Origin: Clostridia bacterium
GTDB taxonomy: Bacteria > Bacillota > Clostridia > Oscillospirales > CAG-272
Reading direction: 5' to 3'
DNA: 46,987 nucleotides
Assembly (NCBI GenBank): GCA_017454525.1
Contig: JAFTCT010000063.1
Span: 1-46,987 of the forward strand
Shown: piece after piece, positions 2,597-38,840 of the stretch
Position numbering within the stretch: the stretch's first letter is position 1
Layout: each line of letters starts with the position of its first letter
Made by a program: the position numbers and the translations under genes
Notes under the pieces: generated by a model
What the model was told of the DNA's origin: nothing
What the model saw: the letters and a program-made list of their open reading frames with translations, nothing else
Database searches by the model: none

Positions 2597-3517
2597 ATGA
2601 AAAAGCTCATCCCCGCAATCGTCCTCTTACTCATTTCTGCGATCGTGATGTCGACTGCTTCCTATGCATGGTTCTCCATGAATACGCAGGTTACGGCAAC
2701 CGGCATGCAGGTTAAAGCAAAATCCAATAGCACGTTCCTGTTAATTGGTAATGAAAACATTACTGCTGAAAAAACCGCTGCAGGAATTCAGGCTCAAACA
2801 GGTGCTGATTTAACAAGTGAAGACCTTACTGTTGCTCTTGCAGATGCAGCAAAATATCCTTCTAAAGTTTGGCTTGGCGATACAGCAGACGGTTATACAA
2901 CCCTTAGTTTGAATGCTGTTGATACTAAAGCCAAAGCGGCGACAGAAGGTAACTGGTACACCGCTAACTCTGATGATCCTACTTTGTGGGGCGGTTCCGG
3001 TCATGTAAAGAATGCAGCTGCGCTGACCAGCACGAACTTTGACAACTATGTCATTAAGAAGAGCGTTAACCTCACTCTTGCTGTCGGTTCTACTAAAGCA
3101 AACAAGCTCACCGTAACTCCTACAATTACAATTGTTGACGATTACTTCAAAACAACCGATACAGCGGTTGACGACAACAAAACGTATTATACGGAATCCG
3201 CCGGAACCTATACAGCAGTTGCTTCCCCTGTTGATGCTGACATTGCCACATATTACGAGAAGGCTCTTGACTATTCTGCAGTAAAGGTCCTTGTTGTTTC
3301 CGATAACAACATCGTTGTTATCATGGATAAAGACACTACTGGTGCGCAGAATCTTTATGATGCCTCTAACAATGCAGACCTGACTGATACCACTGTTCAC
3401 CATGTTGATATCTATATCTACTATGACGGCACCGATACAACAGTTTTCACGAACAATGCTATTAATCTTGCAGGTGCAACGATTGACCTCGAATTTGCGG
3501 TTATGGTCAACGAATAA
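2597..3517 (+). CDS. Expressed TasA-like major fibre subunit (variable cassette behind a fixed signal peptide)
   Basis: 306 aa. Signal peptide MKKLIPAIVLLLISAIVMST is followed by ASYAWFSMNTQVTATGMQV, the 'W-F-S' ending typical of SipW-type substrates such as TasA and camelysin. The ribosome-binding site is AAAGGAG just upstream. The rest is Thr/Asn/Asp-rich and beta-rich, with a segment YYTESAGTYTAVASPV (about residue 198) of a type also met in phage structural and surface proteins. Codons 1-27 have the neighbourhood's composition, whereas the part after WFSMNT is visibly richer in A+T. The fixed/variable boundary coincides with inverted repeats shared with two promoterless cassettes (3839-4534, 37956-38840). 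I infer this is the currently expressed member of a switching set. No SipW-like peptidase is in the window. Confidence 0.72.
   Translation: MKKLIPAIVLLLISAIVMSTASYAWFSMNTQVTATGMQVKAKSNSTFLLIGNENITAEKTAAGIQAQTGADLTSEDLTVALADAAKYPSKVWLGDTADGYTTLSLNAVDTKAKAATEGNWYTANSDDPTLWGGSGHVKNAAALTSTNFDNYVIKKSVNLTLAVGSTKANKLTVTPTITIVDDYFKTTDTAVDDNKTYYTESAGTYTAVASPVDADIATYYEKALDYSAVKVLVVSDNNIVVIMDKDTTGAQNLYDASNNADLTDTTVHHVDIYIYYDGTDTTVFTNNAINLAGATIDLEFAVMVNE
2665..2691 (+). repeat. Proposed inversion site in the expressed fibre gene
   Basis: This encodes the end of the signal peptide and the first mature residues (A-W-F-S-M-N-T-Q). Positions 2671-2691 match 4521-4541 perfectly in inverted orientation (21 bp), and 2665-2686 match 38814-38835 perfectly in inverted orientation (22 bp). 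The core common to all three is GTTCTCCATGAATACG (16 bp). A crossover within the core keeps the reading frame. Confidence 0.75.
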
Positions 3518-3528
3518 TCTTTGCTTTC

Positions 3529-3811
3529 CGGGAGGGGTCCTCGCGATCCCTCCCGGGGAATCCGTTTTGATGATCTGCGCAGATGATCAAAAGAACAAAT
3601 ACGCCCGGTTTTAAGAGGACGACGGGCTGATTGTCCGATAAAAGTCCTTGGCGGACCTCGCCGGGGACTTTTTTCGTACAATTCCGGTGAACCCTCTTAA
3701 TACAAAACGACCAGTCGTCCTCTTAATGCCGGTCGTTTTGTTTCAAGATTTTAATAGTTCGCGAATTATTAAAATACCGGGGATCCAAGAGGGAGTGTTG
3801 GTCCCTCTTGG
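3529..3811 (+). repeat. Left copy of ~283-bp inverted repeat between the arms
   Basis: Matches the reverse complement of 37656-37937. The first ~95 bp differ by one base; the remainder differs by small indels and scattered bases. Internal structures: a CGGGAGGG/CCCTCCCG hairpin after the fibre stop codon; a near-palindrome centred on ATCTGCGCAGAT (~3580); 13-bp inverted TTAAGAGGACGAC (3611-3623) and its complement (3714-3726) flanking a terminator; an 11-bp stem ACAAAACGACC (3702-3712)/GGTCGTTTTGT (3731-3741); a near-palindrome centred on TTCGCGAA (3751-3772); and a hairpin CCAAGAGGG/CCCTCTTGG (3785-3811). No gene is credible in 3518-3838. Confidence 0.9.
3640..3674 (+). terminator. Intrinsic terminator behind the expressed fibre gene
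   Basis: Stem AAAAGTCC/GGACTTTT encloses an inner GGCG/CGCC stem and ends in TTTTTT (3669-3674). It should end the riboswitch-EAL-fibre transcript, so operon A-D needs its own promoter or readthrough. Confidence 0.75.
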
Positions 3812-3838
3812 ATAGAAAAATACTTAACTTATAATAAA

Positions 3839-4534
3839 TTAAGCAAGATCGAATTGGACAGAGAGATTGCCCGTCAACGTGTTCGGAGTGTTGACATAAT
3901 CGGAGTTAACGTTCGTGGTAGTACCGTCGATATAAACATAGAACGTAACCGCTACAGAAGAAGTTGCAGTGATGGAAAAGTTGTTCGTCGTCGTCGCTTG
4001 CGTTCCGTTGGTGAGTTTCAAAGTCTCGGTAGTAGTGCCGTCATTCAGAACGATTACAACAGAAGTGCCTGCATCGCCAGACGCAACGGAAGAGGTGAGT
4101 TTAATCTTGCCGGTGTATGCTTCGGAATCCTGAGAAAGCGTCAGCCATGCATTATAAGTGACAACATAGTTCACAGGCGCAGAAGTTCCCAAATCACGAA
4201 CATTCTTCGTGGCATTGTTTGCATTGTCGCTGTTTCTGTTGTTTGCGGTGTACCAGTGTCCTGCAGTAACACTTAAGTTGGTGGTGCCGTCAGCAGTGCC
4301 GGGCATCGTACCGTTCGCAGCAGCGTAATACGTCGGATATACAATCTTATCGGTGTTTCCGTCACCAGCACCAACGCTTGTTTCGGCATTCGTACCACCG
4401 CTGACAAACGCTGCAGCTTTGGTATCAGCAGAGGTCGACTTGTCGGTCGCATTATCGATGTTGTCGATTAACAGATACGTGGAGTTGGATTTTGCGGTGA
4501 CCTGTAATCCGGTTGCCGTGACCTGCGTATTCAT
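3839..4534 (-). CDS. Silent TasA-like fibre-subunit cassette 1 (no signal peptide, no promoter)
   Basis: 231 aa from the ATG in the shared site, reading toward the expressed fibre gene. It starts MNTQVTATGLQVTAKSNSTY, closely matching the mature start of the product of 2597 (MNTQVTATGMQVKAKSNSTF), then diverges into a different Thr/Asn/Ala-rich beta domain ending in QFDLA. Upstream, beyond 4541, homology to the expressed gene stops abruptly: no signal-peptide codons, ribosome-binding site or promoter. If the 1.87-kb segment between 2671-2691 and 4521-4541 were inverted, the product would be the fixed 27-residue signal peptide plus this domain (about 258 aa), in frame. On its own it is probably not expressed. 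A decayed duplicate is the alternative, but the frame is intact. Confidence 0.75.
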   Translation of the reverse strand: MNTQVTATGLQVTAKSNSTYLLIDNIDNATDKSTSADTKAAAFVSGGTNAETSVGAGDGNTDKIVYPTYYAAANGTMPGTADGTTNLSVTAGHWYTANNRNSDNANNATKNVRDLGTSAPVNYVVTYNAWLTLSQDSEAYTGKIKLTSSVASGDAGTSVVIVLNDGTTTETLKLTNGTQATTTNNFSITATSSVAVTFYVYIDGTTTNVNSDYVNTPNTLTGNLSVQFDLA

Positions 4535-4541
4535 GGAGAAC
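4521..4541 (-). repeat. Proposed inversion site at the head of silent cassette 1
   Basis: Perfect 21-bp reverse complement of 2671-2691. Sequence to the right of 4541 has no similarity to the signal-peptide coding region of the expressed gene. Confidence 0.75.
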
Positions 4542-4624
4542 TGTCAACAGCAGGATTTCAATGAAATACTTTCCGGGCGGTTTTTCATCGCCCGAACGAG
4601 GACCGTTTGATCCTCTTTTGCGCT

Positions 4625-4658
4625 TTTTTTCTATCGCGCGCGCGTATACGCGTACGCA
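4625..4658 (+). repeat. Left copy of perfect 34-bp inverted repeat upstream of gene A
   Basis: Positions 4625-4658 equal the reverse complement of 37447-37480 without mismatch. The element is a T6 run, CTAT, then an alternating CG tract with the palindrome CGCGTATACGCG. It sits about 85-115 bp before both A and A' in sequence that is otherwise not conserved between the arms, so it is likely a regulatory or recombination element. I see no clear -35/-10 promoter beside it. Confidence 0.85.
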
Positions 4659-4741
4659 ATCCCAACAATGAACGAAACGGGGTTTCCCCGAAACGATATA
4701 TTCAAAACGATCGAACAAAACGATTGAAAGGAGGACAACGT

Positions 4742-5773
4742 ATGAACGCCGAAACGAAGAACGCGCTATTCAGTAAAAAGATGATCGGCAGTTTCATTAT
4801 GCTCGTCTTCCTTTTTGCGCTCCTGCTCATCGCCCTCTTCATCGTCTTCAATTCCTCGCTTGGATGGTTTTCGCAAAGTACCGAAGGCGCCACGGCGACC
4901 GGTATGCTGGTTACCGTATCCGACACGCCCGACTACACGCTTCTGATCGAACGGACCGACGAATTCGATGCGGTCGATCCGTTGAACGGGAACGCGGCGC
5001 GCTATCCGGGAATTGCCGGACTGAAAAGCATGCTGGATTACAGCAATACCGGAGATCCGGCGTATAATTCGAGTTACAGATACAGTCTTACGGATCTGTC
5101 AACGTCCGATTACGAAAGACTGGCGTACGAACTCATCAATGAGAACGTTTCCGGCAGGGAAGACTCGGACGACAATTACGATTATCATTTTTTGCGGCCG
5201 GGCAGCTGCGGTACGCTGACTTTCTATCTCAAGCCGCGCGGATCGAACGCGGTGACCGCGGAATTCAATCTGACGGTATGCGGATTCAATAGGTTGTATG
5301 GAGAAATCACGGAAGACAATAACGCCGAGATCATCGATCTGCTGAGCGGTCACATCCTCTTCTTTGAAACGAGAACGGGAAACAGCATCAATACGTACAA
5401 GTATGACGATCTGATCGTCGATCACACGTTCACCTATACGACAGAAGGGAAGACGCCGGTCACCCTCAGAGGGGAAACCTGCTACAAGATCGAACTGTAC
5501 TGGGAATGGCCGATAAACTACGGTTCGATCCGCAGCAACACCGCCGCCAATGAGAACGATACGACGCAGAAATACCCCTGGGTGCTGCACGAGTTCGTGA
5601 AGAATGAGCCCGAATGCTTCTTCGCGGGCGTGGACAACGTCGATTTCACGCAAATCGACAGTCTGAGCCCGGAAGACGTCGAAAAACTGATTGACGGTTA
5701 TAACGACGGCGACCAGGAGATCGGCGACTATGCGAGTTTCCTCATCGCATTCGTCAGCCCGCTGAATTCATAA
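4742..5773 (+). CDS. Accessory TasA-like fibre protein A (left arm)
   Basis: 343 aa. The ATG at 4742 follows a near-ideal GAAAGGAGG; upstream in-frame codons are ignored for that reason. N-terminus MNAETKNALFSKKMIGSFIM leads into a long hydrophobic helix (about residues 14-38) ending in LGWFSQSTEG...ATGM, the same WF(S/A)...GM signature as the fibre subunit. The rest is a large Asp/Asn/Tyr-rich extracellular domain. The homologue A' (36275-37357) shares MNAETK, the helix, NSSLGWF, the 'LYWEWP' stretch, 'DGYNDGD' and the C-terminal 'FL(I/V)AF(V/I)SPL'. First gene of the A-B-C-D operon. Function is unknown; a minor pilin-like or anchoring component of the fibre is inference. Confidence 0.6.
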   Translation: MNAETKNALFSKKMIGSFIMLVFLFALLLIALFIVFNSSLGWFSQSTEGATATGMLVTVSDTPDYTLLIERTDEFDAVDPLNGNAARYPGIAGLKSMLDYSNTGDPAYNSSYRYSLTDLSTSDYERLAYELINENVSGREDSDDNYDYHFLRPGSCGTLTFYLKPRGSNAVTAEFNLTVCGFNRLYGEITEDNNAEIIDLLSGHILFFETRTGNSINTYKYDDLIVDHTFTYTTEGKTPVTLRGETCYKIELYWEWPINYGSIRSNTAANENDTTQKYPWVLHEFVKNEPECFFAGVDNVDFTQIDSLSPEDVEKLIDGYNDGDQEIGDYASFLIAFVSPLNS

Positions 5774-5819
5774 GATTTAAAGGCGACCTGAAAGAAAAAA
5801 CGGAAAGGATGGCGCTTTC

Positions 5820-6608
5820 ATGGAACATAAACAAAAGAGACGTGCGATCGTCAGACTTTTCCTTGCGGCGCTCGGACTTCTGCTCGCGGCGACGCTGCTG
5901 TCGCTCCAGGTGACCGCCTGGTTCTCTTTGAGAAGAACGCTTGCCGCGTACGCGCCGATCGACAATCCGGAATCGATCTACATCGGCGCGGGACACCGGA
6001 ACATCAACGCGTCCGGCTTCACGGATAACCATTTTGAGGATATCCGCTATCTCTATTTCGAAGGCATCGACGTGGATAAGGGCAAGGACTATTACGATTA
6101 CGTCTTCTGCGTCTTCGGGACCGGCGTGGAGTTTTTCAAACTGCAGCTCTCCTTTACGACGAACAATCAATTCACCTACGACGTTTTTCTCGCCGATGAA
6201 TGGGACGGCACGGAGCCGGGCTACGACGGAAGCGCCGAGCAGGTCGATTATAAAATGAGTATCAAATATGAAGGGGATGCGGATTACCGGATCTACCACT
6301 ATACGATCAACGGCAGCGCTCTTGCGGGATCGTATCTGAACGACAAGTCCGTCACTCCTCTGCTCGCGCACTCGACGGAAGCGGCGAATAACAACCCCGC
6401 AAATCTGCACGATGATACGTACGGCAGCTATGAACGCGTTCAGAAGTACGCCGAGCCGATCTATTGGCAGACGACGAACTCGATCAGCGGCAACGCCGCG
6501 GGAGATTTCATCCGCTATTTCATTCTTCGGGTCAATCTGAACGGCAAGGCGACCAACGACCGCGAGACCGACGTGATCTGCATCGCGGCGAAATCGTCGT
6601 CCGTTTAA
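5820..6608 (+). CDS. Accessory surface protein B (left arm), WFS-type signal
   Basis: 262 aa. Basic N-terminus, one hydrophobic segment (about 10-30), then VTAWFSLRRTLAAYAPIDNP. Best conserved with B' (35419-36237) are AWFSL.RTL.AYAPI, IGAGHR, IRYLYFEGIDV.KG, YYDYVFCVFG, TTNNQF, YGSYERVQKYAEP.YWQ and the C-terminal NDRETDVICIAAKS. I do not recognise a named family beyond the WFS-type signal ending. GGAAAGGA precedes the ATG by about 10 bp, and 46 bp separate it from gene A. Its constant place between A and C in both arms suggests a structural part of the same complex. Confidence 0.6.
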   Translation: MEHKQKRRAIVRLFLAALGLLLAATLLSLQVTAWFSLRRTLAAYAPIDNPESIYIGAGHRNINASGFTDNHFEDIRYLYFEGIDVDKGKDYYDYVFCVFGTGVEFFKLQLSFTTNNQFTYDVFLADEWDGTEPGYDGSAEQVDYKMSIKYEGDADYRIYHYTINGSALAGSYLNDKSVTPLLAHSTEAANNNPANLHDDTYGSYERVQKYAEPIYWQTTNSISGNAAGDFIRYFILRVNLNGKATNDRETDVICIAAKSSSV

Positions 6609-6671
6609 AAAAGGTTTTATATACAAGGCAAACGCTCTGTTACGTGCACAGCGAACGGTTGAGGGATGCAC

Positions 6672-7694
6672 ATGAGAAATGACAAAGATCAAAAATCGAA
6701 TATCAAACGGCTGTTGATGATCACCGCGATCCTTCTTTGCTGCACCGCGTCGATCGCGGCGTGCGTCGTGTCCTTCGCGGAATTCACCAACAGTAAGCAT
6801 GCGCAGCGTACCATCGCGGTGTACGACACCGGCGGCGTCCGCTTTTCGTCGAACCACTTGACGAACCTGACCGGCGGAGGCGTCAAGACCGACGTCCGCA
6901 CGATCTATACCGCCGGCGAGGAAGCGATCGCATACGTGACGGTCTGCAACTATCCGCAGGGCGCGAAAACGCTCTTAAGCAACGAGGACCTGACCTATAC
7001 CGTGCGCGTCCGGCTCGTGTCGGACAGCGGAAGCGGCTACGACGACGCCGTACCGGACAACAGCGCCGTATTGCCGGGAGACGATCATTATTTCGTTGAT
7101 GTTTACTATAACGATCAGGCGTCGCCTGTCGCGACGCTGACGACGAGCGGATCCGTGACGATCCCCTCCTCCGGCTCCTATACACTTGATCACAGCGCGG
7201 CGCAGACGGATGAGTTTACCGTTGTTTTCAGTTCCGTCAAGGACTCCGGCGGTAACGAGATCTGCCTTGAAATGGTCGCCGTGCCGAGCGTGCCGGGATA
7301 TCCGACGCTTGCCGCGATCTTCAAACCGGCGTCCCGTCTGGCGGAAGCGGCCAGTAGCTGGGAGGGCGAGTTCCGTGACAATCACGCTTCGCTTCCGTCC
7401 GCGTACGACGGCTTCAACTATCTGATCACCGGCTCCGGTTCCGGGACCGTTACGCTGACCTGGGATACGACGCATCTTGCGCTCAGCGCCGTTTCACAGA
7501 AAACGTTACAGTCGATCACCGGAGCGACCGTGTCGTCCGGCAGCGCCGTGTTCCCGGTGAATTCCGACGAGGAAAACCGCTATGATCTGCAGTTCTATAA
7601 GACGGACGTCTCAACGGCGGCCGATTGGGACAGCTGGGCCGATCTGGAAGCGGCTTCAACGGGCTACTTGCAATTCACTTTCAGCATTACTTGA
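6672..7694 (+). CDS. Accessory surface protein C (left arm)
   Basis: 340 aa from the ATG at 6672; GAGGG overlaps the alternative ATG at 6666, so the second ATG has the proper spacing. Hydrophobic segment about residues 14-36, then SFAEFTNSKHAQRTIAVYD. The C' homologue (34351-35361) reads SLAAFTNSLHAQRTIAAYD at the same place. Shared later motifs are GVRFSSN, VTVCNYPQG, YDGFNYL(I/V)TG.GSGTVTLTWD and NRYDLQFYK. Extracellular beta-rich protein of unknown function; the (W/A)-x-F-T/S ending after the helix loosely matches TasA/camelysin-type signals. Confidence 0.6.
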   Translation: MRNDKDQKSNIKRLLMITAILLCCTASIAACVVSFAEFTNSKHAQRTIAVYDTGGVRFSSNHLTNLTGGGVKTDVRTIYTAGEEAIAYVTVCNYPQGAKTLLSNEDLTYTVRVRLVSDSGSGYDDAVPDNSAVLPGDDHYFVDVYYNDQASPVATLTTSGSVTIPSSGSYTLDHSAAQTDEFTVVFSSVKDSGGNEICLEMVAVPSVPGYPTLAAIFKPASRLAEAASSWEGEFRDNHASLPSAYDGFNYLITGSGSGTVTLTWDTTHLALSAVSQKTLQSITGATVSSGSAVFPVNSDEENRYDLQFYKTDVSTAADWDSWADLEAASTGYLQFTFSIT

Positions 7695-7742
7695 TCAATA
7701 CCGACCGGAAATGAACCGGCGGATCGATTTTTTGGTGAGAAT

Positions 7743-18262: not shown

Positions 18263-18291
18263 GGACCGCTGATCGGGATACGAAGATCTGC

Positions 18292-18337
18292 AAAAAAGTC
18301 AAGTACGATTTTACAAAGGATCGTACTTGACTTTTTT
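18292..18337. terminator. Bidirectional terminator after D
   Basis: An 18-bp perfect stem, AAAAAAGTCAAGTACGAT (18292-18309) and its complement (18320-18337), with a 10-base loop; A6 and T6 tails make it functional on both strands, for D (+) and the recombinase (-). Confidence 0.92.
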
Positions 18338-18359
18338 CATGCATTTGTTATCCGCTCTG

Positions 18360-18408
18360 AAAAGTTTATGTAATTCACAGCAAAACTTTAAAAATATAAA
18401 AGTTTATG
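18360..18408. repeat. Short direct and inverted repeats beside the recombinase gene
   Basis: AAAAGTTTATG occurs at 18360-18370 and again at 18398-18408; an inverted AAAACTTT lies between them (about 18383-18390). The block is A+T-rich and abuts the 3' end of the serine recombinase gene. It could hold recombinase half-sites or an old attachment site; nothing proves this. Confidence 0.4.
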
Positions 18409-18442
18409 CTATACACCAAACCGGCTGCAGGGAAGCACATCG

Positions 18443-19972: not shown

Positions 19973-20021
19973 AAAAAGGGGCTGTTCATTTGCAGGCAAA
20001 TGAAACAGCCCCCTGTTTTTT
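19973..20021. terminator. Terminator of the Dabb-to-LRR operon; copy of a dispersed hairpin
   Basis: Stem GGGGCTGTT (19978-19986) and AACAGCCCC (20004-20012), with further pairing of CATTTGC/GCAAATG inside; A5/T tracts on both sides. It shares AATGAAACAGCCCCCTGTTT with the hairpin at 44263-44293, where it again follows the 3' end of a minus-strand gene. Confidence 0.85.
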
Positions 20022-20033
20022 GTTTCCGGTCGG

Positions 20034-23786: not shown

Positions 23787-23841
23787 TGCTTCCTCCCGTA
23801 TCTGCAAAATTCTTCATAAGATGACTAAAGATACCGATCAT

Positions 23842-23870
23842 ATTTTACCATATCCGCAAAGAATTTGCAA
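23842..23870 (-). promoter_or_regulatory. Promoter of the Dabb-HAD-mutY-ECF-LRR operon
   Basis: On the minus strand TTGCAA (23870-23865), 17 bp, TAAAAT (23847-23842); the expected start is about 50 bp before the Dabb ATG. Confidence 0.75.
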
Positions 23871-23914
23871 TAGAAAAACGCGGTTTTTTCCCTTGTGCGG
23901 GCGCCACGGAAAAG

Positions 23915-23963
23915 AAAAAGGACCGTACGTACTCCGGGGCACGGAGCGCATACAGCCCTTTTT
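23915..23963. terminator. Terminator after D'
   Basis: Imperfect long stem between AAAAAGGACCGTACGTACTC and GAGCGCATACAGCCCTTTTT with a GC loop; A and T tails on both sides, so it can act on both strands. It lies 28 bp beyond the stop codon of D'. Confidence 0.75.
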
Positions 23964-23990
23964 GATTTGATTTTTTACCTGCGCCTGAAC

Positions 23991-32900: not shown

Positions 32901-34295
32901 AGGCTGACTGGCGGACTGACTGGTCACGCCGCTGATCGAGATATAAGCGGCTTCAGCGCCGGTTTCGTCGTCGACGACTTTGCCGATCAGACCGCCGCTG
33001 CTCACGCCGGAAGCGCTGACCGTCGTGCGCGTGTTTGTGACGGTCAGCGTGTTCTTCAGCCGGTTCGTTTTATAGCCGCCGCAAATGCCGCCCGCGCCTT
33101 TCTTGCCGGTAACGCCGACGTTGACGGTCTCGGGGCCGCTCGCGTTTCCGTTAAAGGAGAAGGTCTGCGCGCCGCTCTCTATAGCCGTTTCAAGAACGCC
33201 GAAGATCCCGCCGGCATATTCGTCGGTACTGGAAACGCTCATGCCCGCGGTCGTATTGTAACTGTCTGCAAGCGTGAAAGTTTCAGCCGCTTCCACGCTC
33301 TTATAGTAACCGAACACGCCGCCGGCGCTCTTTTTGCCCGATACCGGTCCGTCCACGGTGATATCTCCGGTATACTGCGCCGTATCGACGGTCGCGTCGT
33401 TACATTTGCCGACCAGACCGCCGGCGTATCCGTTTGAGGACGTCACGCCCTTGACGGGATAGGTATTGTTCTTCAGATTCAGCACGGAACCGGGCTGCAT
33501 TTCTCCGACCATACCGCCGGCGTCGCCGTCCGAAGAGGATACGGTAACGTTTGAAGCGCTGCCCGAAAGGGTCGCCGTCAGCGTGGCGCCCGAACCGAGA
33601 TTTCCGCAGATATAGCCCGCGTCCGAGGAAGAGGAAACGTTGAGCGACGTATTGTTGGTGAAGCCCACGGTCACATTGCAGTCGTCGGCAATATCGCCGA
33701 TCAGACTCTCAAAAGACACCGAAGGCATTTCTTCTCCCGATACGGGATAGAGCTCGACGTTCCAGGATGCGCTCGCATTATCGCCTTTCACCACATGATT
33801 CGCAAAAAGAGAGCCGTGCGTCAAAACGCCCGCCGCAGGCGTATCGTTCGCCTGTTCGCGGACGATCTTGACGACGCCGGTGATCTTTGTATCAGTGGAA
33901 ATATAATCGAACAACGGGCAATCGAAAAGATGGAAGGTATCTGTTCCCGAAGCAGGAATCTGGATCGTTCCCGCAAAGGGTCTTGACGACGTGCCGAGAC
34001 TGATAAAACCGTCGCCGGAAACGATATCGCCGCCGGTGATCGAAATATTCAGAACGTCCTTCGGGTTTCTTCCGCCGGCGGCGTACGCAGTCGAATAATC
34101 GATGAAATCCAGTTTGGACCTGATATAATACGTCTGCGCCGGATCTTCAGCGCGCACGGTCAACAATCCGCCGAAAACGAGAAAAAGCGCGCCCGTCACG
34201 AAGGCGAGGACGAGCACCCCCGCGATCACAAGGATCGCGCGGCGCCGTCTCGGACGATCATTCATTTTTGTTACGGTTTTTTTCTTCATATTCAT
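23991..34295 (-). CDS. Giant GLUG-repeat surface adhesin D' (right arm, intact)
   Basis: 3,434 aa from ATG 34295 (AGGTGAG upstream; a GTG at 34304 overlaps that site). Basic N-terminus MNMKKKTVTKMNDRPRRRR, signal/anchor helix (AILVIAGVLVLAFVTGALFL), then LTVRAEDP as likely cleavage region. Many GLUG-like repeats (AGGMVGEM, YAGGLVGKC, AGGVFGYYK, AGGLIGNLG, AGGLVGYAC, AGGIIGFST) in the same two clusters as in D. The C-terminal third is conserved with D: LLIENVGMPVT, AHLIMGKIFDH, GDKVGDFTPLGIN, VIYTNAKIIP. Two tandem VGGQGYR/VNGQGYR units lie near 25.5-25.7 kb. No sortase motif. The part at about 27.3-32.6 kb has much higher GC than the same part of D. Last gene of A'-B'-C'-D'. Adhesion is inferred from fold type and size. 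Confidence 0.8.
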   Translation of the reverse strand: MNMKKKTVTKMNDRPRRRRAILVIAGVLVLAFVTGALFLVFGGLLTVRAEDPAQTYYIRSKLDFIDYSTAYAAGGRNPKDVLNISITGGDIVSGDGFISLGTSSRPFAGTIQIPASGTDTFHLFDCPLFDYISTDTKITGVVKIVREQANDTPAAGVLTHGSLFANHVVKGDNASASWNVELYPVSGEEMPSVSFESLIGDIADDCNVTVGFTNNTSLNVSSSSDAGYICGNLGSGATLTATLSGSASNVTVSSSDGDAGGMVGEMQPGSVLNLKNNTYPVKGVTSSNGYAGGLVGKCNDATVDTAQYTGDITVDGPVSGKKSAGGVFGYYKSVEAAETFTLADSYNTTAGMSVSSTDEYAGGIFGVLETAIESGAQTFSFNGNASGPETVNVGVTGKKGAGGICGGYKTNRLKNTLTVTNTRTTVSASGVSSGGLIGKVVDDETGAEAAYISISGVTSQSASQPAGGLIGNLGSKAPFVDVSGSVTVTGTFDAGVIGDAQTGVLRMQGVLDLSGYTAINADSAFIVKNRDRALIYALGDGKGTNGSWTFKRNVTQSIDDVHSWGEVIRTDGVILKEGDLFTVDMTEHTVTVKEAHTTIDNVTKFAKTALNMKLNTGDGFGALLFTSGDANLASTLNAATLNIGADIDLAGTGLTGFQRDDGYLKNWSGTSNTAKFTGTLNGNNHAITLATGENYGLQGNGTALDATSKQGNIHQHLYNGLFARTGGTASVNNLTVSGTAMLEQRIGGMNFGGVTACATQGLTLSHVTSTVGIRHRARGNYTAHIGGAIGIAQDNNLDVSITDCSFTPTYTDTSDEGNAAGNISTYVGGAIGSVYETATSSNTQNVSFTDTALGLTFNKTGSSDRASVFGGAIANISTGTYVKDRRTVSFDNVTVDVNVTGHARDRKFGAILGAQWYAADVTMNGVTMDASITATGSAADYAGLVRSATGHWDVQDISFGTVNYNVPSGGSTFGVGVNKAYLVDGEVEGALYMDVNDAGYDIGSLTFTGSPSFSVFDEVCADSRFNGTDITTNGQSIISITNDSGSLINTSGTVNVYQNKTAYGKTAAGAINAYTRYYYNMAYARTHTETPKYKFLTWSAKAYAHNSLDAWFATDDTTFTGDLDMTGLSYYPVDLNEGVTFSSATLKLDNNLMETWVNPETAGTRSTRANDNQHYLMHTAVFRNDPTASINISGLTIQGNVPKLSDGFCGFLVAGTLGGAEKDKVTFNGSNLVFDGAYITNAGAYFTDTTYAPLLINNIGKNTDLTIAGAAQSTSAYSSLVPNFAASSLIGDVGETTARAIYLTFTGLKFDGRSSASSIGNLDTAYGTTKSIFSRATILNSFKYTSESSGTYNYMVDEDWTSSANPAHNVTYGREITSPAAEFYDLQSRYLSSEYYTNPTTNHAGSAYDFSSGWLPHVYVPYNLALYQHELSVNVAFVSEIEGCGKYGDPYVIDDDEKLGIISKIIRGDDVGSDVKIYFPNDMSSAVDSNENDANAAIYAKTNYTKYQYAFGTTNFTRVTGSGTVSNTNARRWLAGAYYVVTRDITLSGGVSTEYVSLGEVSDAQYAFRGVIVGRGNPVITNNSRQPLIYTSLGCVIKDLTVKVDVDYNGTSDITIAAPQGNGTYALSGGNNAYGAVIRQILGGDNIIDNVNVTFTSATFNITSAGSSYYPRLVPVGGYVGVIVNGGLVFRNMPASYKGLTASTFSAVNDAGYLYVNPIIGRVIAGYAFHEASTASAVSATMDNGSKNYTLADVSRSGGKITVTDSSSQFTISVPDGQSLFLLSAAINSGACSAATGGNLTGDIKTYQDLSDFWAGFRAYTASRAGATYDDVGTASGDDFELAKKDKVVNSLARVPYILRAYTADDNSRLYMRSLARRTNNILQITGDCDISAGFRGIGSHYLNNDYLRLRVARVTGGTTASPVTKTLTFHMDVRSYETNNVSKYICLTEKNGDYTFPTTGGLGLFNNLKMTGVTKDGDNYVQNLELSGSIFYDVYTIGGEKSQYNYGTGSKQVSLDTYCSVGGIAGIATTGSFGIKDVTFNDFRVEGAKNAGGLVGYACMRNIGTSSFIKYTDGVSSAGSVTVIGGHTAGGLIGRVYECRVEIYGADGGTDIVVKDISLKAQSLNDTGSVISGNWINNLTTGAGGVIGSNFPYHKGNSGNEQDVLRNGETSTISSKRTYIYDINVVAGSTPATIRVQNDTSNVSDINVAGGFIGTTQNTVLKIIRCKLQNVNVKANIAGGIIGFSTQKVAMHLQDILVDGTDKSHAIQGNAVAGGVFGRFRARDGVASDINGVTVTNYTIESLSTVNNAVCAAGGILGEANGDNKPKTDTSMKPFEFRNAAVSNCIIKTNYTDGSNFCGTGGLIGSATPGSTKDKEANYLSYTNTVKIAGYNILLDNLELIHLAGGDTDQSTASTNSKIGDIIGNNSASAEIKLVGVTTSNMDYIGKHAGYYNSTSDNYGDGGTGFGTGFAVFADFRGNTTDNQDGFANIEDGSTAEDDYTNVEYASPYVTSNPLLTLGTLKITGDGTAATVSDLPINLILDGTSGARYEHSKNAYYTDSSGETNVQVFSRYNDGSRFSTFSAEVAGYLGTDFPVLILDDINKDHATEMINSYLRLLTNTTYDYGIDIENVYDVKIYNVVYNAASNSYSVSAAGASLRRYDGKFFMRSTVFDSGKSQFSLIDVRYSDPVKTSDTAYHLYVPVFVKKVLSYEFRVGLLSGTTYLQDPYRDRFGELLIENVGMPVTSFFEYSFTRTAEEWATAINAGEVVDRVYDKKLLFIKANTNELLKDFPSSTKLVLVDPNSGGAAYYADFSAVSGNQLSLSSFTGFTQKKLSELMKLTVTEDPAGTLVECGDGETASVTVGGQGYRLADSIDGVDDSAKTKYTVSVGTTMVEDQKNGTYVRCTGGETATLTVNGQGYRAATDAELADNSVKKYTADVCSERYYLSIYTDASVNPDYFYHYTLQPQSAFDNNDYPSKLFNTTDDKRLAHLIMGKIFDHSDIAVTSSPKDPAKGDTMDSTNNEINVSLSATFGLSSDLDDTANGGVNIVNEISDIVTSDTVQVFQSFLIQLNRTEGGVMKKEILGDPTATGSFSIDRTINASADSSPSAYGDTDSVTGTVSAIHSKQDYVEFVTFDVSNMFTYTDGGSGPAPQYFEIVSNVKLTYDDSAIDTQFPGRGDEPPYNQDGVTVTGHSNIAFQQESTPYSKNTIEADDKADGSAAFRHNYHTARASEHAELELTPIGDKVGDFTPLGINSLNPPDNVERSAYVEETFSLLPELDVTLIQDRVRDYDHAKVTVTLTQKTDSGYVEPFTSDGSYAYGIDDFIKSLFWGNDLSTATAISVDAAGKAYAVTLPKAALDDRGGDIFFPLLNFTVKTGSDLENAHQFFANYKITVTVVLQESGRDINVSSAYNYVIYTNAKIIPYFYVPPVTP

Positions 34296-34350
34296 CACAC
34301 TCACCTGAAATCGGCGCAGCCGTACTGCCGCCGTAAAAGAAACAAAACGT

Positions 34351-35361
34351 TTATGCGAAGCTGAACGTCACAACGTCGGTCGTCATTGCCGACCATGTCA
34401 TCGCAGAAACCGGAGGTTCCGCAAAACTGTTCCCGGACCATACGTCGGCGCTGCCGTTGACCTTGTAAAACTGCAGATCGTATCGGTTGGCAGCGTCCGA
34501 GTCGACGGAGAACACAACGGTTTTGACGCTGCCGGAAGACGTCGGCGTCGGTGAGCCGGGCAGGAGCGCCAACGAAACGGCGCTCATCTCCACGATCCCG
34601 GAATCCCACGTCAGCGTCACGGTTCCGCTGCCTACGCCGGTCACAAGATAATTGAAGCCGTCGTAATCCTTGGGGGCAACGCTCTTGTCGTCACGGAAAT
34701 CGCCCGACCATGCGTTGGAAGCGCCGGCGGCGCGCAGTTCGGGTTTCAGAACGCCCTTAAGTGTGGGAAGTCCCGGCGCAGAGGCTTCCACCTTCACATA
34801 CAGGTTCGGATCTTCAGACGCAAAGGACGAGGAAAAAGAGAAGGAATACGTATCGGCGATCGCGCTGCCGCCGGCAATACTTTCGCTGATCGTCGTTGTC
34901 AGCACCTGCCCCGAACCGCCGCCGAGCGTTACGGTCGAACTTTCGCCGTAACTGATCGTGACCGTATGCGCGCCGGCTTCCGCCGCCGATGCGGCGACGT
35001 AATCATTTTCCGTCTGATCAAATTTCACAAGCGTCGCCGTCAACGTATAGTTGACGTCTTTCTCGTTCGGGAAAAGGATCTTTCCCTGCGGATAGTTGCA
35101 TACCGTGATAGGGAGCGTCGTCGGGTACGCGCTGTTCGTGGTATAGATCGTCATGTCGTTTCCGTCCGCGGTCAGATAGTTCGAAGAAAAACGTACGCCG
35201 ATATCGTCATACGCCGCGATGGTGCGCTGCGCGTGCAGACTGTTCGTAAACGCAGCCAGAGAGACCGTCACGGAGGCCATTGACAGCACACAGATCGCCA
35301 AAAAGACCGCGATCATCGCAATTTGCGGTTTATTCAGTTTTCCGACGCCGTTTTTCCTCAT
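34351..35361 (-). CDS. Accessory surface protein C' (right arm)
   Basis: 336 aa; homologue of C (6672-7694) with the same hydrophobic segment and SLAAFTNSLHAQRTIAAYDD, GVRFSSNYL, ITVCNYPQGK, PGLPTLKGVLKP, YDGFNYLVTGVGSGTVTLTWD, VFSVDSDAANRYDLQFYK. AAGGGAAG precedes the ATG. Role unknown; parallel position in both arms argues for one structural slot filled by alternative versions. Confidence 0.6.
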   Translation of the reverse strand: MRKNGVGKLNKPQIAMIAVFLAICVLSMASVTVSLAAFTNSLHAQRTIAAYDDIGVRFSSNYLTADGNDMTIYTTNSAYPTTLPITVCNYPQGKILFPNEKDVNYTLTATLVKFDQTENDYVAASAAEAGAHTVTISYGESSTVTLGGGSGQVLTTTISESIAGGSAIADTYSFSFSSSFASEDPNLYVKVEASAPGLPTLKGVLKPELRAAGASNAWSGDFRDDKSVAPKDYDGFNYLVTGVGSGTVTLTWDSGIVEMSAVSLALLPGSPTPTSSGSVKTVVFSVDSDAANRYDLQFYKVNGSADVWSGNSFAEPPVSAMTWSAMTTDVVTFSFA

Positions 35362-35418
35362 GTCGTCTTTCTTCCCTTTCGGTTTGATCGTAACTCCGGT
35401 TGAATCATACCGTAAAAC

Positions 35419-36237
35419 TCACGCGGATTTTGCCGCGATACAGATCACGTCGGTCTCACGGTCGTTCTCGGTTTTTCCGTTCATATAGACGCGCAGGATG
35501 TAGTAGTTGATGAAATCCTTCTGCGCATGTCCGACCTCTTTGGTCACGGAAGAACTCTGCCAGTAAAGCGGTTCGGCGTACTTCTGAACGTTCACATAAG
35601 CGCCGTAGGTCGCTTCGTGCAGATTCGTCATGCCCGCGCCCGCGGTATCGCCGACCGTCAAGCCGAGTTTTTCGCCGTTTTCCTCTTTCAGATTCAGAAA
35701 GCTGCCCGTCAGAGCGCTCCCCGTCGCTTTATAATAATAGGTTTCGGGCGTTTCCGTGTGCGTGACGTATTCTATGCATCCGCTCTTGCCCGCGTCATCC
35801 AGACTGCCGTATTCCGTCGCGGTATATTCCGCTGCGTGGAAGATCTCATAGTCAAACTGATTGTTGGTCGTGTAGGCGAGCTGCAGTTTGTAATAGGGGA
35901 TCGCCTTGCCGAAAACGCAGAATACGTAATCGTAATAATTGCTGCCTTTTACCGCGTCGTACGCGCCCTTGCCCACGTCGATCCCCTCAAAATAGAGGTA
36001 TCGGATATTTTCGAAATAGTCGCCGGTGAAAACGTGATTCACCGCGTCAAAATCGCGGTGTCCGGCGCCGATGAAGAGCGCTTCGGGCTTGGCGATCGGT
36101 GCGTATGCGCCGAGCGTTCTGCTCAGCGAGAACCACGCCATGACCGGGACCGTCACAACCGACGCGAGCGCAAGCAGAAAAGCGATCACGCCGAACAGCC
36201 AGTGAAGGCGTTTGTACAGAATGATCTTCCGTTCCAT
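35419..36237 (-). CDS. Accessory surface protein B' (right arm), WFS-type signal
   Basis: 272 aa; homologue of B (5820-6608). Helix (about 14-34) followed by VMAWFSLSRTLGAYAPIAKP; shares IGAGHR, IRYLYFEGIDVGKG, YYDYVFCVFGK, TTNNQFDYE, YGAYVNVQKYAEPLYWQ and NDRETDVICIAAKS with B. GAAAGGAGG lies before the ATG. It differs from B mainly in the middle (residues ~130-200). Confidence 0.6.
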   Translation of the reverse strand: MERKIILYKRLHWLFGVIAFLLALASVVTVPVMAWFSLSRTLGAYAPIAKPEALFIGAGHRDFDAVNHVFTGDYFENIRYLYFEGIDVGKGAYDAVKGSNYYDYVFCVFGKAIPYYKLQLAYTTNNQFDYEIFHAAEYTATEYGSLDDAGKSGCIEYVTHTETPETYYYKATGSALTGSFLNLKEENGEKLGLTVGDTAGAGMTNLHEATYGAYVNVQKYAEPLYWQSSSVTKEVGHAQKDFINYYILRVYMNGKTENDRETDVICIAAKSA

Positions 36238-36274
36238 ATCCGTCCTCCTTTCAGATCGTTTTTTCTTCGCCCGT

Positions 36275-37357
36275 TCAGAGCGGGCTGATGAAAGCGACTA
36301 AGAAATTCGCGTTTTCACCGATCAACTGGTCGCCGTCGTTATACCCGTCGCTTAACAGTTCCGGGTCGCTGCTGTTCTGATTTGTCAGGAAAAAAAAGTC
36401 TCTGTGGTCGTCCATATACGTCCGCAGCGATGCGGGATAGCGCTTTGTCTGTGAGGCGGCGACGCCGATGTTATCATTGATCTCGCCGTACGTCAGCGGC
36501 CATTCCCAGTAAAGGGTGATCTGATAGCAGGTCACGTCTTCGCCCTTCAGATTCTTGGTCACCGTCGGGAGCGTGATATTGCCGTCGTCGTCCAGAAGAA
36601 CGCCGCTGTCGATCTGAAGCAGCTCATTGTCAACGAGTCCGCCGTAAACGTAAGGATCAGCCACGGTGCCCGATCCGGTCCTGCTCTTGAAGAAGAGCAT
36701 ATGTCCTCTGAGCAGCGCGTTGACCGTATCGTTTATGACTTCTTCCACGTGCGGGATCTCCTGTGAAGAATCCTCCGGATCGGGGATCATCGTATAATAG
36801 AAACTGTTGGTCGTCAGTGCAAGATCCGCGACGGTCGAGCCGGTCCTGTCCCTCAGATAGAAGGTCAGCGTTCCGTGCGCGCCGGGCATCAGATACCTGT
36901 AATGGACAGAATCTATCGTCGTTTGCGTCTCGTTTACGAGCTCGAACGCAAGTTTGCTCGCGTCGTTCGTCGACCATTCGGCGAAACTGTAACTGTAAGG
37001 CGAGGCGGCGAGGGTGCTCTTGAAGGGCGAAACGCCCGGATAAACCGGATCGGAATTGCTGTCAATTCTGTCGAACTCACCGTCGCCGACGGAAGGATTC
37101 GCGCCCGCAACAGGCGCGCCCGGATTGTCAAAGGCGGTCGTGCTCGCGATGCGGTCGACAAGCAGTTCATAGTCGAAACGATTAACGATGATCTGCATAT
37201 CCGTAACGGAAGCGCTGCCCGATACAGCGAACCAGCCGAGCGAAGAATTGAAGACGATGAAGAGCGATATGAGCAGAAGCGCAAAAAGAAGGCACAGCAT
37301 AATGAAGCTGCCGACGAACTTTTTGTTTTTCAGCATACTTTTCGTTTCAGCGTTCAT
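36275..37357 (-). CDS. Accessory TasA-like fibre protein A' (right arm)
   Basis: 360 aa from the ATG at 37357 (GAAAGGAGG upstream, the same start context as A). MNAETKSMLKNKKFVGSFIM, a helix, NSSLGWFAVSGSASVTDMQI, then a large extracellular domain; the C-terminus DGYNDGDQLIGENANFLVAF matches A. The Ser of the WFS signature is Ala here. First gene of the right-arm operon; the perfect 34-bp element 37447-37480 lies 90 bp upstream. Confidence 0.6.
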   Translation of the reverse strand: MNAETKSMLKNKKFVGSFIMLCLLFALLLISLFIVFNSSLGWFAVSGSASVTDMQIIVNRFDYELLVDRIASTTAFDNPGAPVAGANPSVGDGEFDRIDSNSDPVYPGVSPFKSTLAASPYSYSFAEWSTNDASKLAFELVNETQTTIDSVHYRYLMPGAHGTLTFYLRDRTGSTVADLALTTNSFYYTMIPDPEDSSQEIPHVEEVINDTVNALLRGHMLFFKSRTGSGTVADPYVYGGLVDNELLQIDSGVLLDDDGNITLPTVTKNLKGEDVTCYQITLYWEWPLTYGEINDNIGVAASQTKRYPASLRTYMDDHRDFFFLTNQNSSDPELLSDGYNDGDQLIGENANFLVAFISPL

Positions 37358-37446
37358 GAGCGGTCCTCCTTTCAAAAGTTTTTTATTGGAAACGGGCGCT
37401 GCCCGGAGTTTTCAATACTCGGTTGTTCCCTTTGCGGGAACGGTTA

Positions 37447-37480
37447 TGCGTACGCGTATACGCGCGCGCGATAGAAAAAA
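37447..37480 (-). repeat. Right copy of perfect 34-bp inverted repeat upstream of gene A'
   Basis: Exact reverse complement of 4625-4658; contains CGCGTATACGCG. Neighbouring bases on both sides do not match the left arm. Confidence 0.85.
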
Positions 37481-37655
37481 TGCGGCTTTGGCGCCGGGCG
37501 ACCGCGCGCAAAGCGCGCGAAGTTACGGAAAGGCGCGGGAGAAGAAAATCCTCCCTCAAAGCCTTCCGTGTGGATCGTTCACCACCGATAATGGCAACAT
37601 CTACAGGACGAACGTCATTTCTCTCGACGCTGCTTGATTGAACGCTAATCTTTCT
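37481..37655. other. Gene-free spacer, possible remnant of a fourth cassette
   Basis: Between the 34-bp element and the long inverted repeat the left arm holds silent cassette 1, whereas the right arm has only 175 bp. The mirrored position would be the plus strand, and a plus-strand frame there ends FTTDNGNIYRTNVISLDAA just before the terminal hairpin (stop at 37635-37637). It might be the tail of a deleted cassette, but similarity to the known cassettes is too weak to claim. Otherwise I see only a GCGCG-rich stretch. Confidence 0.3.
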
Positions 37656-37937
37656 CAAAAGAGGGCTTCTCCGCCCTCTTGGAGCCCAGTTTTTAATATT
37701 TCGCGAATTATTAAAATTTTGAAACAAAACGACCGGCATTAAGAGGACGACTAGTCGTTTTGTTTTAAGAGGCGCGGCGATTGAACGAAAAAAGTCCCCG
37801 GCAGTTTGGTCCGCCAAGGACTTTTATCGGACAATTCAGCCCGTCGTCCTCTTAAAACCGGGCGTATTTGTTCTTTTGATCATCTGCGCAGATCATCAAA
37901 ACGGATTCCCCGGGAAGGATCGCGAGGACCCCTCCCG
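37656..37937 (-). repeat. Right copy of ~283-bp inverted repeat
   Basis: Reverse-complement partner of 3529-3811, with the same internal structures in mirror order: hairpin 37659-37680, TTCGCGAA near-palindrome 37693-37714, 12-bp stem around 37717-37764, TTAAGAGGACGAC pair (37739-37751 and complement 37843-37855), terminator, and a near-palindrome centred on ATCTGCGCAGAT. It lies directly behind silent cassette 2, just as the left copy lies behind the expressed fibre gene. Confidence 0.9.
37788..37825 (-). terminator. Intrinsic terminator behind silent cassette 2
   Basis: Mirror copy of 3640-3674: on the minus strand AAAAGTCC (37825-37818), an inner weak stem, GGAC, then TTTTTT (37793-37788). 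Confidence 0.7.
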
Positions 37938-37955
37938 AAGAATAATAAACCATAA

Positions 37956-38840
37956 TTAAGGTGTAGCAGTAATTTTGGTAATATTTGCAACTCCGGTAGC
38001 AGTACTTCCAAGTTCCATTTCGAGATCAAGTGCCCATTGACCGGTCAAAAGCATAAAGGTTTCATTATTGCAAGTATTGTCTTCGCCTTCAAGCCACAGT
38101 CTCACGACCACTTTGTAGTATTTGGTAGTCGTAGCGGGAACGGATGCAAGATCCACTGCCGCCGTCGCATAAGCAGTAGAAAGATCATCTACGGTGGTAG
38201 CATCTTTTACCGCTTTTCCGGAGGTAAAGTTATCAGCGCCGGAAACCGTGTAGATTGCATTGATCGTGCCGGGTGCTGCAGTAGCAGTACCGTCGGTAAT
38301 GTCTTCAACGAAAAATGCTACACGATATGCTTTTGTGTTCTCAACCTCAGAACCAGTCTGCGTGTAGGTGAAATCAAGTTTTGTCAATTTGATCGGAGCA
38401 GCGGAACCCTGAGTATTTGTCGCTTTGAGCTGGAAGACGTAATCAACATAGCCAACCGCTTTATCTTGTCCTGTAATTCTTGCATTCGCAATAGATTTGG
38501 AAACGCCGTAGTTTTGCGAGAAAGCGTTGGTGTAATTGGTCGTATCAGTAGCATCACCTAAGCCGGTAGTGGCATAAGGAAGGTAGGTGTCAGCAATCGC
38601 ATCGCCGTTTGCATAAACGTTATTTGTTGCGGTGTAGAAGAAAGTGGTACCGTTGATAGTGGAAACGGGTTCAAGAATACCCTTCACTTCCTGAGTAAGA
38701 CTATTGCTGAAAAGATTATCAGCCTTTTTTGCGGTGCTGTCAAGCGTATCGCCTGCGATCAGCAGGTTATCGTTCACAACCGCTTTGACCTGCATGCCGG
38801 TCACAGTAACTTTCGTATTCATGGAGAACCATGCACACAA
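37956..38840 (-). CDS. Silent TasA-like fibre-subunit cassette 2 (no signal peptide)
   Basis: About 294 codons; the frame can only begin at a TTG (38840) giving a CAWFSMNTKVTVTGMQVKA start, with no hydrophobic signal peptide and no ribosome-binding site. From WFSMNT it aligns with the mature start of the expressed fibre gene, then diverges. The C-terminal strands VVRLWLEGEDNTC and LEMELG resemble the protein of 1713-2504. Inversion between 2665-2686 and 38814-38835 would join it in frame to the fixed signal peptide (about 315 aa) and place A'-B'-C'-D' behind it on the same strand. Visibly richer in A+T than the flanking lipoprotein gene. Presumably not translated in the sequenced orientation. 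Confidence 0.75.
   Translation of the reverse strand: MCAWFSMNTKVTVTGMQVKAVVNDNLLIAGDTLDSTAKKADNLFSNSLTQEVKGILEPVSTINGTTFFYTATNNVYANGDAIADTYLPYATTGLGDATDTTNYTNAFSQNYGVSKSIANARITGQDKAVGYVDYVFQLKATNTQGSAAPIKLTKLDFTYTQTGSEVENTKAYRVAFFVEDITDGTATAAPGTINAIYTVSGADNFTSGKAVKDATTVDDLSTAYATAAVDLASVPATTTKYYKVVVRLWLEGEDNTCNNETFMLLTGQWALDLEMELGSTATGVANITKITATP
38814..38835 (-). repeat. Proposed inversion site at the head of silent cassette 2
   Basis: Perfect 22-bp reverse complement of 2665-2686, including the Trp-Phe-Ser-Met-Asn-Thr codons. Farther upstream (beyond 38836) no similarity to the signal-peptide codons remains. Confidence 0.75.

What the first reader, a model, noticed from the sequence alone, without database searches (positions are those of the whole stretch)
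2597..38840. One expressed fibre gene and two signal-less cassettes joined by inverted sites: a likely fibre-switching locus
Seen: one TasA-like gene (2597) has a ribosome-binding site and signal peptide. Two other fibre coding regions on the opposite strand lack both and start at the WFSMNT codons. Perfect inverted matches join them: 21 bp (2671-2691 / 4521-4541) and 22 bp (2665-2686 / 38814-38835), with a 16-bp common core. Either inversion keeps the frame and yields signal peptide plus a new mature domain (about 258 or 315 aa). Homology stops just upstream of the core in both cassettes, as expected of a recombinational boundary. Known: invertible pilin and flagellin cassettes exist (shufflon PilV, Hin/FljB), but I know of none described for TasA-like fibres. 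Inference: antigenic or phase variation of a matrix fibre.
Basis: partly seen in the sequence, partly recalled or inferred. Interest (0 to 1): 0.93.

Follow-up and report, generated by a model that had tools for sequence, protein, structure and literature searches.

The report
Invertible switch for surface-fibre bodies
Next to one complete gene for a predicted secreted fibre protein, this bacterium carries two spare fibre bodies that lack an export signal and face the other way, joined to it by matching inverted sequences at which DNA inversion would likely swap the body of the fibre; a protein from a natural sample, with exactly this gene's export signal fused to a body 92% identical to one spare, suggests that such swaps have happened.

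Summary
Fibre gene A (2597-3517) has a ribosome-binding site and signal peptide; cassettes B and C on the other strand have neither and share the 16-bp core GTTCTCCATGAATACG with A, inverted and in frame. The tools add: (1) a natural metagenomic protein, P0002, with A's exact 30-residue signal and core fused to a mature domain 92% identical to C, the predicted swapped product; (2) a large serine recombinase (18443-19936) in the locus; (3) the same anatomy, with homology starting at the same GTTCTC and a recombinase beside the cassette, in two other genera; (4) A and C each head a paralogous operon ending in a giant protein, in mirror image, so A/C inversion would likely swap whole fibre units; (5) signal peptides and mature domains are largely decoupled across relatives. 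Not shown: inversion within one population, or that the recombinase does it. A 265-bp repeat behind A and C, and a direct-repeat version in Ruminococcus flavefaciens with no related recombinase nearby, leave homologous exchange open. It works like Mu-G or Moraxella pilin inversion, with a new cargo (TasA-like fibre) and probably a different enzyme class.

The parts
678..755 (+). c-di-GMP-I riboswitch aptamer (RF01051) upstream of the EAL gene and fibre gene A
   Evidence: Rfam 57.7 bits, gathering 35
816..1712 (+). EAL-domain gene; an EAL gene also precedes the fibre in G009 and G397
   Evidence: Pfam PF00563 E 1.3e-14
1713..2504 (+). gene of unknown function between the EAL gene and the fibre (263 aa); a gene of similar size and place in G009 and G397
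   Evidence: ORF list; no Pfam family over its cut-off
2597..3517 (+). expressed-form fibre gene A: RBS, signal peptide, mature domain from the WFSMNT codons
   Evidence: predicted beta-sandwich
2665..2691 (+). core of A: 16-bp GTTCTCCATGAATACG at 2671-2686, extended to 21 bp shared with B and 22 bp shared with C
3529..3774 (.). IR-L, repeat starting 11 bp after the stop of A, inverted copy behind C
   Evidence: 269 aligned bp at 91.5%, first 102 bp 99%; nowhere else in the genome as a long match
3839..4541 (-). cassette B: open mature domain without start or signal
4621..4658 (.). 38-bp element before operon A, inverted copy before operon B (97%)
4742..7694 (+). operon A, three small genes (4742-5773, 5820-6608, 6666-7694)
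   Evidence: ORF list; 38-48% identical to the operon B genes; same gene order behind fibres in relatives
7913..18262 (+). giant protein of operon A (3,449-aa open frame; its likely signal lies in another frame at 7743-7985)
18443..19936 (-). large serine recombinase, 497 aa
   Evidence: Resolvase 6e-33, Recombinase 4.4e-24, Zn_ribbon_recom 3.7e-11
23991..37375 (-). operon B, mirror image of operon A: 36275-37375, 35419-36237, 34351-35361 and a 3,437-aa giant protein (23991-34304)
37447..37484 (.). 38-bp element before operon B
37691..37937 (.). IR-R, inverted copy of IR-L, starting 18 bp after the stop of C
37956..38835 (-). cassette C: open mature domain without start or signal, core at 38814-38835

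Best explanation
One fibre gene and two signal-less fibre cassettes share an in-frame inverted core at the first codons of the mature domain, and DNA inversion there, likely by the large serine recombinase encoded in the same locus, would put a different mature domain behind the single signal peptide. Shown: the inverted core with its sharp 5' edge; open cassettes without start or signal; the recombinase gene; mirrored paralogous operons; a natural protein equal to the predicted A-signal/C-domain product at 92%; signal-less cassettes next to recombinase genes in two other genera. Inferred: that the recombinase acts at the core, that the flip is reversible, and that A/B inversion (1.9 kb) swaps the fibre body alone while A/C inversion (36 kb) also brings operon B behind the expressed fibre in place of operon A. 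The core codes for the place that corresponds to TasA's donor strand, the N-terminal strand that plugs into the next subunit, so each swap would keep the polymerisation plug and change the exposed body (inference from predicted fold and from TasA). The c-di-GMP riboswitch and EAL gene upstream suggest control of the fibre by c-di-GMP (inference).
For: Exact inverted core in frame, sharp 5' edge. P0002: A's 30-residue signal and core, letter for letter, plus a C-type domain at 92%; among the 266 listed hits only A and P0002 have that 30-mer. Recombinase with all three domains in the locus. G009: signal-less C-like cassette followed by two large serine recombinases, the only two PF07508 matches in that genome; G397 (another family): fibre, inverted cassette 3.85 kb away, and a recombinase 52% identical to the window's whose open frame ends 15 nt before the cassette core. 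Homology between fibre and cassette begins at GTTCTC in window B, G009 and G397. Recombinase in the locus in 3 of 3 genomes with inverted cassettes against 0 of 9 other fibre genomes tested, p 0.0045. Signal and mature-domain distances are weakly or not correlated. The cassettes are open over 231 to about 290 codons.
Against: No flipped junction in this genome, and the database entries for A, B and C (4, 3 and 3 contigs) are all in the reference form; their member contigs were not inspected. R. flavefaciens has a signal-less cassette on the same strand, with a 606-bp repeat and no match to this recombinase in 30 kb; with it the association is 3 of 4 against 0 of 9, p 0.014. The window's recombinase lies about 15 kb from A, and in one of the nine (G032) a PF07508 match is on the fibre contig 30 kb away, so the distance limit was set after the fact; short contigs limit the nine. 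The nearest recombinase relatives found (64% in G002, 56% in G106) are not beside a fibre, and the fibre-linked enzymes are not one exclusive clade. The DNA left of the core is different at each site, so a shared full-length recognition site is not evident.
Confidence: 0.62

Rival explanations
1. The bodies are exchanged by homologous recombination or gene conversion, using the core and the conserved codons behind it on the 5' side and the 265-bp repeat after the stop codon on the 3' side, like pilE/pilS or yeast mating-type cassettes; the serine recombinase is a bystander.
For: Between A and C, DNA homology is confined to 54 bp at the core (89%) and 269 bp starting just after the stops (91.5%), while the bodies between are unlike. 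R. flavefaciens shows the same box pattern (conserved N-terminal codons, 606-bp repeat at 98.7% starting 26 bp after each stop) with no related recombinase in 30 kb.
Against: B has no such repeat in the same orientation and G397 has only short scattered matches downstream of the bodies, yet both have the sharp core edge. In G009 and G397 a large serine recombinase stands right beside the cassette.
Confidence: 0.22
2. The cassettes are dead-end relics of duplicated fibre genes that lost their 5' ends; nothing switches.
For: All copies seen in this genome and in the database entries for A, B and C are in one arrangement. Most of the relatives with a fibre have no inverted cassette in this core form.
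Against: The cassettes have stayed open over 231 to about 290 codons; P0002 puts a C-type body behind A's exact signal; independent loss of 5' ends at the same base in three genera is unlikely; signal and body are decoupled in relatives.
Confidence: 0.11
3. The locus is a scar of a prophage or mobile element whose integrase used the fibre core as attachment site; the cassettes are displaced or element-borne fibre ends.
For: The recombinase groups with paired enzymes from contigs without a fibre, and in G397 its open frame ends 15 nt before the cassette core, as an integrase gene beside an attachment site would.
Against: Simple integration leaves directly oriented half-genes; B, C and the G397 cassette are inverted. 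Between the two operons lie a MutY-like and a HAD hydrolase gene, an LRR gene and the recombinase. It could still be how the system arose.
Confidence: 0.05

Closest known systems
Phage Mu G segment / Gin-type tail-fibre inversion (recalled); PinQ inversion in E. coli (PMC12529663, search listing and start of abstract only)
   Same: A constant N-terminal coding part outside, alternative C-terminal parts facing each other inside the invertible segment, crossover inside the reading frame, recombinase gene nearby
   Different: Enzyme here is a large, integrase-type serine recombinase, not a small invertase with an enhancer; cargo is a predicted secreted bacterial fibre; the A/C segment would be 36 kb and carries two operons
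Moraxella pilin inversion with Piv (recalled; the 1988 M. bovis report is listed in PMC11868660, passages read)
   Same: A surface fibre subunit with constant start and exchangeable bodies
   Different: Piv is of another recombinase family (recalled); type IV pilin, not a TasA-like subunit
R64 shufflon PilV (recalled)
   Same: More than two alternative C-terminal bodies at one expression site
   Different: Tyrosine recombinase Rci and several short segments; here two cassettes and a serine recombinase
Neisseria pilE/pilS gene conversion (recalled)
   Same: Silent bodies without promoter and 5' end, with homology on both sides for A-C
   Different: Cassettes are inverted, a recombinase gene is in the locus, and B lacks the 3' homology
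TasA fibres of Bacillus subtilis (PMC9674648, passages read)
   Same: Predicted fold resembles TasA; in TasA the donor strand is residues 28-38, directly after the signal
   Different: No Pfam sequence match; the TasA operon is tapA-sipW-tasA; no switching is described in the passages read

Membership tests
C-terminal-cassette inversion systems (Mu G, Moraxella pilin) | Constant 5' coding part outside the invertible segment, bodies inverted to each other inside | tested here: met
   Window A/B and A/C, and G397
C-terminal-cassette inversion systems (Mu G, Moraxella pilin) | Crossover site inside the reading frame, product in frame | tested here: met
   Core in the same frame in A, B, C; natural product P0002
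C-terminal-cassette inversion systems (Mu G, Moraxella pilin) | Both orientations found in one population | not testable with these tools
   No reads available; no flipped junction in this assembly
C-terminal-cassette inversion systems (Mu G, Moraxella pilin) | Recombinase of the known invertase families (small serine invertase, Piv, Rci) | tested here: not met
   The enzyme in the locus is a large serine recombinase; the Mpi invertase model scores 15.6 against a cut-off of 272
Large serine recombinases | Resolvase, Recombinase and zinc-ribbon domains in one protein of about 500 aa | tested here: met
   All three over their cut-offs, 497 aa
Large serine recombinases | Recombination at the core sites | not testable with these tools
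   Needs a reporter assay
TasA-like donor-strand fibres | Sequence match to the Pfam family of TasA | tested here: not met
   No Pfam family for A or C at E up to 1; B has only a sub-threshold match to DUF7402
TasA-like donor-strand fibres | TasA fold | tested here: inconclusive
TasA-like donor-strand fibres | N-terminal donor strand inserted into the next subunit | not testable with these tools
   Inferred from position and conservation only
Silent-cassette gene conversion (pilE/pilS type) | Silent copies bounded on both sides by homology to the expressed gene | tested here: inconclusive
   Met for A-C and for R. flavefaciens; not for B in the same orientation; only short matches in G397
Silent-cassette gene conversion (pilE/pilS type) | RecA dependence, donor unchanged | not testable with these tools
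   Needs strains

The most novel reading that the evidence does not exclude
A whole-unit fibre switch: an integrase-type serine recombinase turned invertase flips a 36-kb mirror-image segment so that one c-di-GMP-controlled promoter and signal peptide drives either of two complete fibre systems (major subunit, minor subunits and a giant protein of about 3,440 residues), while nested inverted sites (core, 265-bp repeat, 38-bp element) and the small A/B flip let bodies and operons reassort. The crossover lies in the donor-strand codons, so variants stay able to polymerise with each other.
Probability: 0.33. Interest if true: 0.92.

Novelty: new variant of a known kind. Interest (0 to 1): 0.8.

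Why it matters
If right, TasA-like matrix fibres, usually treated as fixed structural proteins, have a built-in way to change their exposed bodies, with the same inverted anatomy in three genera of one bacterial order and, in another geometry, in Ruminococcus flavefaciens. It would likely be a new job for integrase-type serine recombinases (inversion of chromosomal surface genes) and suggests why the donor-strand codons are so conserved: they may serve both as polymer plug and as crossover site. It also makes testable whether gut and rumen Clostridia vary their fibres to follow substrates, phages or host immunity.

Tried and rejected
Flipped junctions elsewhere in the same genome: none. Silent cassettes in 27 handles (24 different genomes by contig coordinates: G032/G749, G393/G755 and G613/G762 are pairs): among the matches whose loci were read, only G000, G009 and G397 have them in this core form; not every listed match returned a locus. 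Of 15 family genomes with a fibre match, eight entered the recombinase count, with four more found by the core pattern; G015, G019, G027, G035, G051, G114 and G125 (weaker matches) were not tested, and G129's fibre is cut by its contig end. Among 125 genomes of the genus around G757, 24 matched a C-family profile; of the loci read, one (G782) has a signal-less cassette. G002, the same-genus genome with the closest recombinase (64%), has no fibre match, and its contig ends inside the recombinase gene. G024's contigs C12 and C121 share 1,501 bp at 95.5% up to just past the core and then differ in the mature domain; this fits body replacement but may be two strains in one bin, so it is not counted. 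Signal-less database hits (23 of 266; 14 start exactly at the MN of the core, two of them the window's own) may include cut contigs and are support only. Promoter-like sites were not above shuffles. Pfam and NCBIfam give no function for the fibre, small operon or giant proteins that were scanned. The plain Foldseek search of A had no match at E below 0.001. Literature: ten searches, on large serine recombinase and inversion, TasA and phase variation, intragenic inversion, Piv pilin, invertible serine-recombinase loci in the gut, TasA/camelysin, c-di-GMP riboswitch with phase variation, Ruminococcus with TasA/SipW, and invertible pilin with serine integrase; listings were capped in some (8 of 78, 10 of 15, 6 of 7). 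I saw no title or abstract start that describes TasA-type fibre switching. Only passages of PMC9674648 and PMC11868660 were read.
Full report
Check of the observation. Reading the sequence confirms every coordinate. Fibre gene A (2597-3517, +) has a ribosome-binding site, a signal peptide (MKKLIPAIVLLLISAIVMSTASYA) and then WFSMNTQVTATGMQ. Cassette B (3839-4541, -) and cassette C (37956-38835, -) encode mature domains that begin with the same motif, open for 231 and 288 codons, but a stop lies shortly before the core and there is no start or signal. The 16-bp core GTTCTCCATGAATACG is at 2671(+), 4541(-) and 38829(-); a search of the whole genome (2.35 Mb, 140 contigs) with a 17-bp version and up to 2 mismatches finds these three and one further 2-mismatch site. 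A matches B over 21 bp with no matching base directly upstream, and C over 22 bp (6 upstream). Beyond that 9-13 of 30 upstream positions match, against 23-24 of 30 just downstream of the core.

What lies around it. Behind A stands operon A (+): three small genes and a 3,449-aa giant open frame. Behind C, in mirror image, stands operon B (-): three paralogous genes and a 3,437-aa giant. The four pairs are 38-48% identical as proteins. Against that divergence three stretches are nearly identical and inverted: the core; a repeat that begins 11 bp after the stop of A and 18 bp after the stop of C (269 aligned bp at 91.5%, its first 102 bp at 99%); and a 38-bp element before each operon (97%). The repeat has no other long match in the genome. 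Between the operons lie a MutY-like gene, a HAD hydrolase gene, an LRR gene and, at 18443-19936 (-), a 497-aa large serine recombinase with Resolvase, Recombinase and zinc-ribbon domains; the genome has three PF07508 matches in all. Upstream of A are an EAL gene and a c-di-GMP-I riboswitch at 678-755.

Evidence that bodies are exchanged. A search of about 5.8 billion proteins with C returned, besides the window's own entry (P0001), P0002: a 317-aa protein on a 1,944-bp metagenomic contig with A's signal peptide and WFSMNT letter for letter (30 of 30 residues) followed by C's mature domain at 92%. Of the 266 proteins listed by three searches only A and P0002 have that 30-mer; 174 distinct signal variants were counted. 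This is the product predicted for A/C exchange, found in a relative. Among 241 signal-bearing hits, 242 pairs have an identical 26-residue signal/core stretch, and in 21 of them the mature domains are under 45% identical. Distances between signal peptides follow distances between mature domains weakly or not at all (Spearman 0.27, -0.02 and 0.07 for the A, B and C families), while mature segments of equal length follow the rest of the domain at 0.39-0.58, 0.50-0.70 and 0.07-0.32. The C family is the weak case, since some of its own segments also track poorly. Mean signal distances (0.45-0.56) lie within or below the range of the segments.

Recurrence. The core pattern occurs in 7 of 395 genomes of the family and 7 of 394 of the order (the sets overlap). 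In G009 (another genus) one contig ends inside a fibre gene with signal, and another begins with a signal-less C-like cassette on the minus strand followed by two large serine recombinases, the only PF07508 matches in that genome; that the two contigs abut is inference. In G397 (another family) one stretch holds the fibre with signal (-), an inverted signal-less cassette (+) 3.85 kb away, and a recombinase 52% identical to the window's, whose open frame ends 15 nt before the cassette core. In both, as in B, homology between fibre and cassette begins at the G of GTTCTC. EAL genes precede the fibre in both; c-di-GMP-I riboswitches occur in 7 of 8 related stretches scanned, G009:C83 being the exception. 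A recombinase in the locus: 3 of 3 genomes with inverted cassettes, 0 of 9 other fibre genomes tested (p 0.0045). Limits: the window's recombinase lies about 15 kb from A; in G032, one of the nine, a PF07508 match is on the fibre contig 30 kb away; several contigs are short; seven further genomes with weaker fibre matches were not tested.

A case against a simple story. In Ruminococcus flavefaciens (G782:C7; its fibre is identical to P0009, so named by its source) a full unit with signal is followed on the same strand, 16 kb on, by a signal-less fibre cassette; a 606-bp repeat (98.7%) starts 26 bp after the stop of each. No match to the window's recombinase lies in the 30 kb fetched, and a relaxase gene lies nearby. 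With it the association is 3 of 4 against 0 of 9 (p 0.014). So the recurring part is a signal-less body that begins at conserved N-terminal codons and, in two systems, ends at a downstream repeat. Homologous exchange stays a serious rival for A-C, less so for B or G397. A tree of 14 recombinase rows joins G009 and G397 (100/100); the window's enzyme sits in a group with them and with enzymes from contigs without a fibre (93/96), so descent from integrase-type enzymes is likely and recruitment may have happened more than once.

Mechanism and limits. I commit to DNA inversion at the core, likely by the resident large serine recombinase (0.62), with homologous exchange (0.22), relics (0.11) and an integration scar (0.05) as rivals. 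Shown: the anatomy, its recurrence, the swapped product in a relative. Not shown: the reaction, its reversibility and rate, whether the operons follow the flip (each may have its own promoter; the scans were uninformative), and any benefit.

Comparison. It works like the Mu G segment or Moraxella pilin inversion (recalled); it differs in enzyme class (tested) and in cargo. Ten literature searches (named under Tried and rejected) showed no description of such a switch for TasA-like fibres or of a large serine recombinase as invertase of chromosomal surface genes; the library lacks most subscription papers, so this is no proof of absence.

Noticed in passing
7743-7985 and 7913-18262: The open frame of giant A starts with GTG and has no signal; an 80-aa frame just before and overlapping it (7743-7985, different frame) has a signal-like helix. 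Giant B carries its signal-like helix in frame. This may be a real frameshift or an assembly error.
   Followed up: partly
678-1712: c-di-GMP-I riboswitch directly upstream of an EAL gene and the fibre; riboswitches of this family in 7 of 8 related fibre stretches scanned, often in pairs.
   Followed up: partly
L169 and L170 (G782:C7:28001-58000): Ruminococcus flavefaciens: two fibre units in direct orientation, the second without signal, with 606-bp repeats at 98.7% and a relaxase gene nearby.
   Followed up: partly
G024:C12 and G024:C121 (L082, L081): Two contigs of one bin share 1,501 bp at 95.5% up to just past the fibre core, then have different mature domains, and are alike again downstream.
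   Followed up: no
19998-20030 and 44280-44312: A 33-bp direct repeat (91%), one copy just upstream of the recombinase gene; looks like a hairpin.
   Followed up: no
1-553: 187-bp tandem units and a G+C-rich run of short repeats at the contig start.
   Followed up: no
L107:12866-13207: A small ORF between fibre and cassette of G397 that looks like a HicB-type antitoxin (by eye, not scanned), among many inverted repeats.
   Followed up: no
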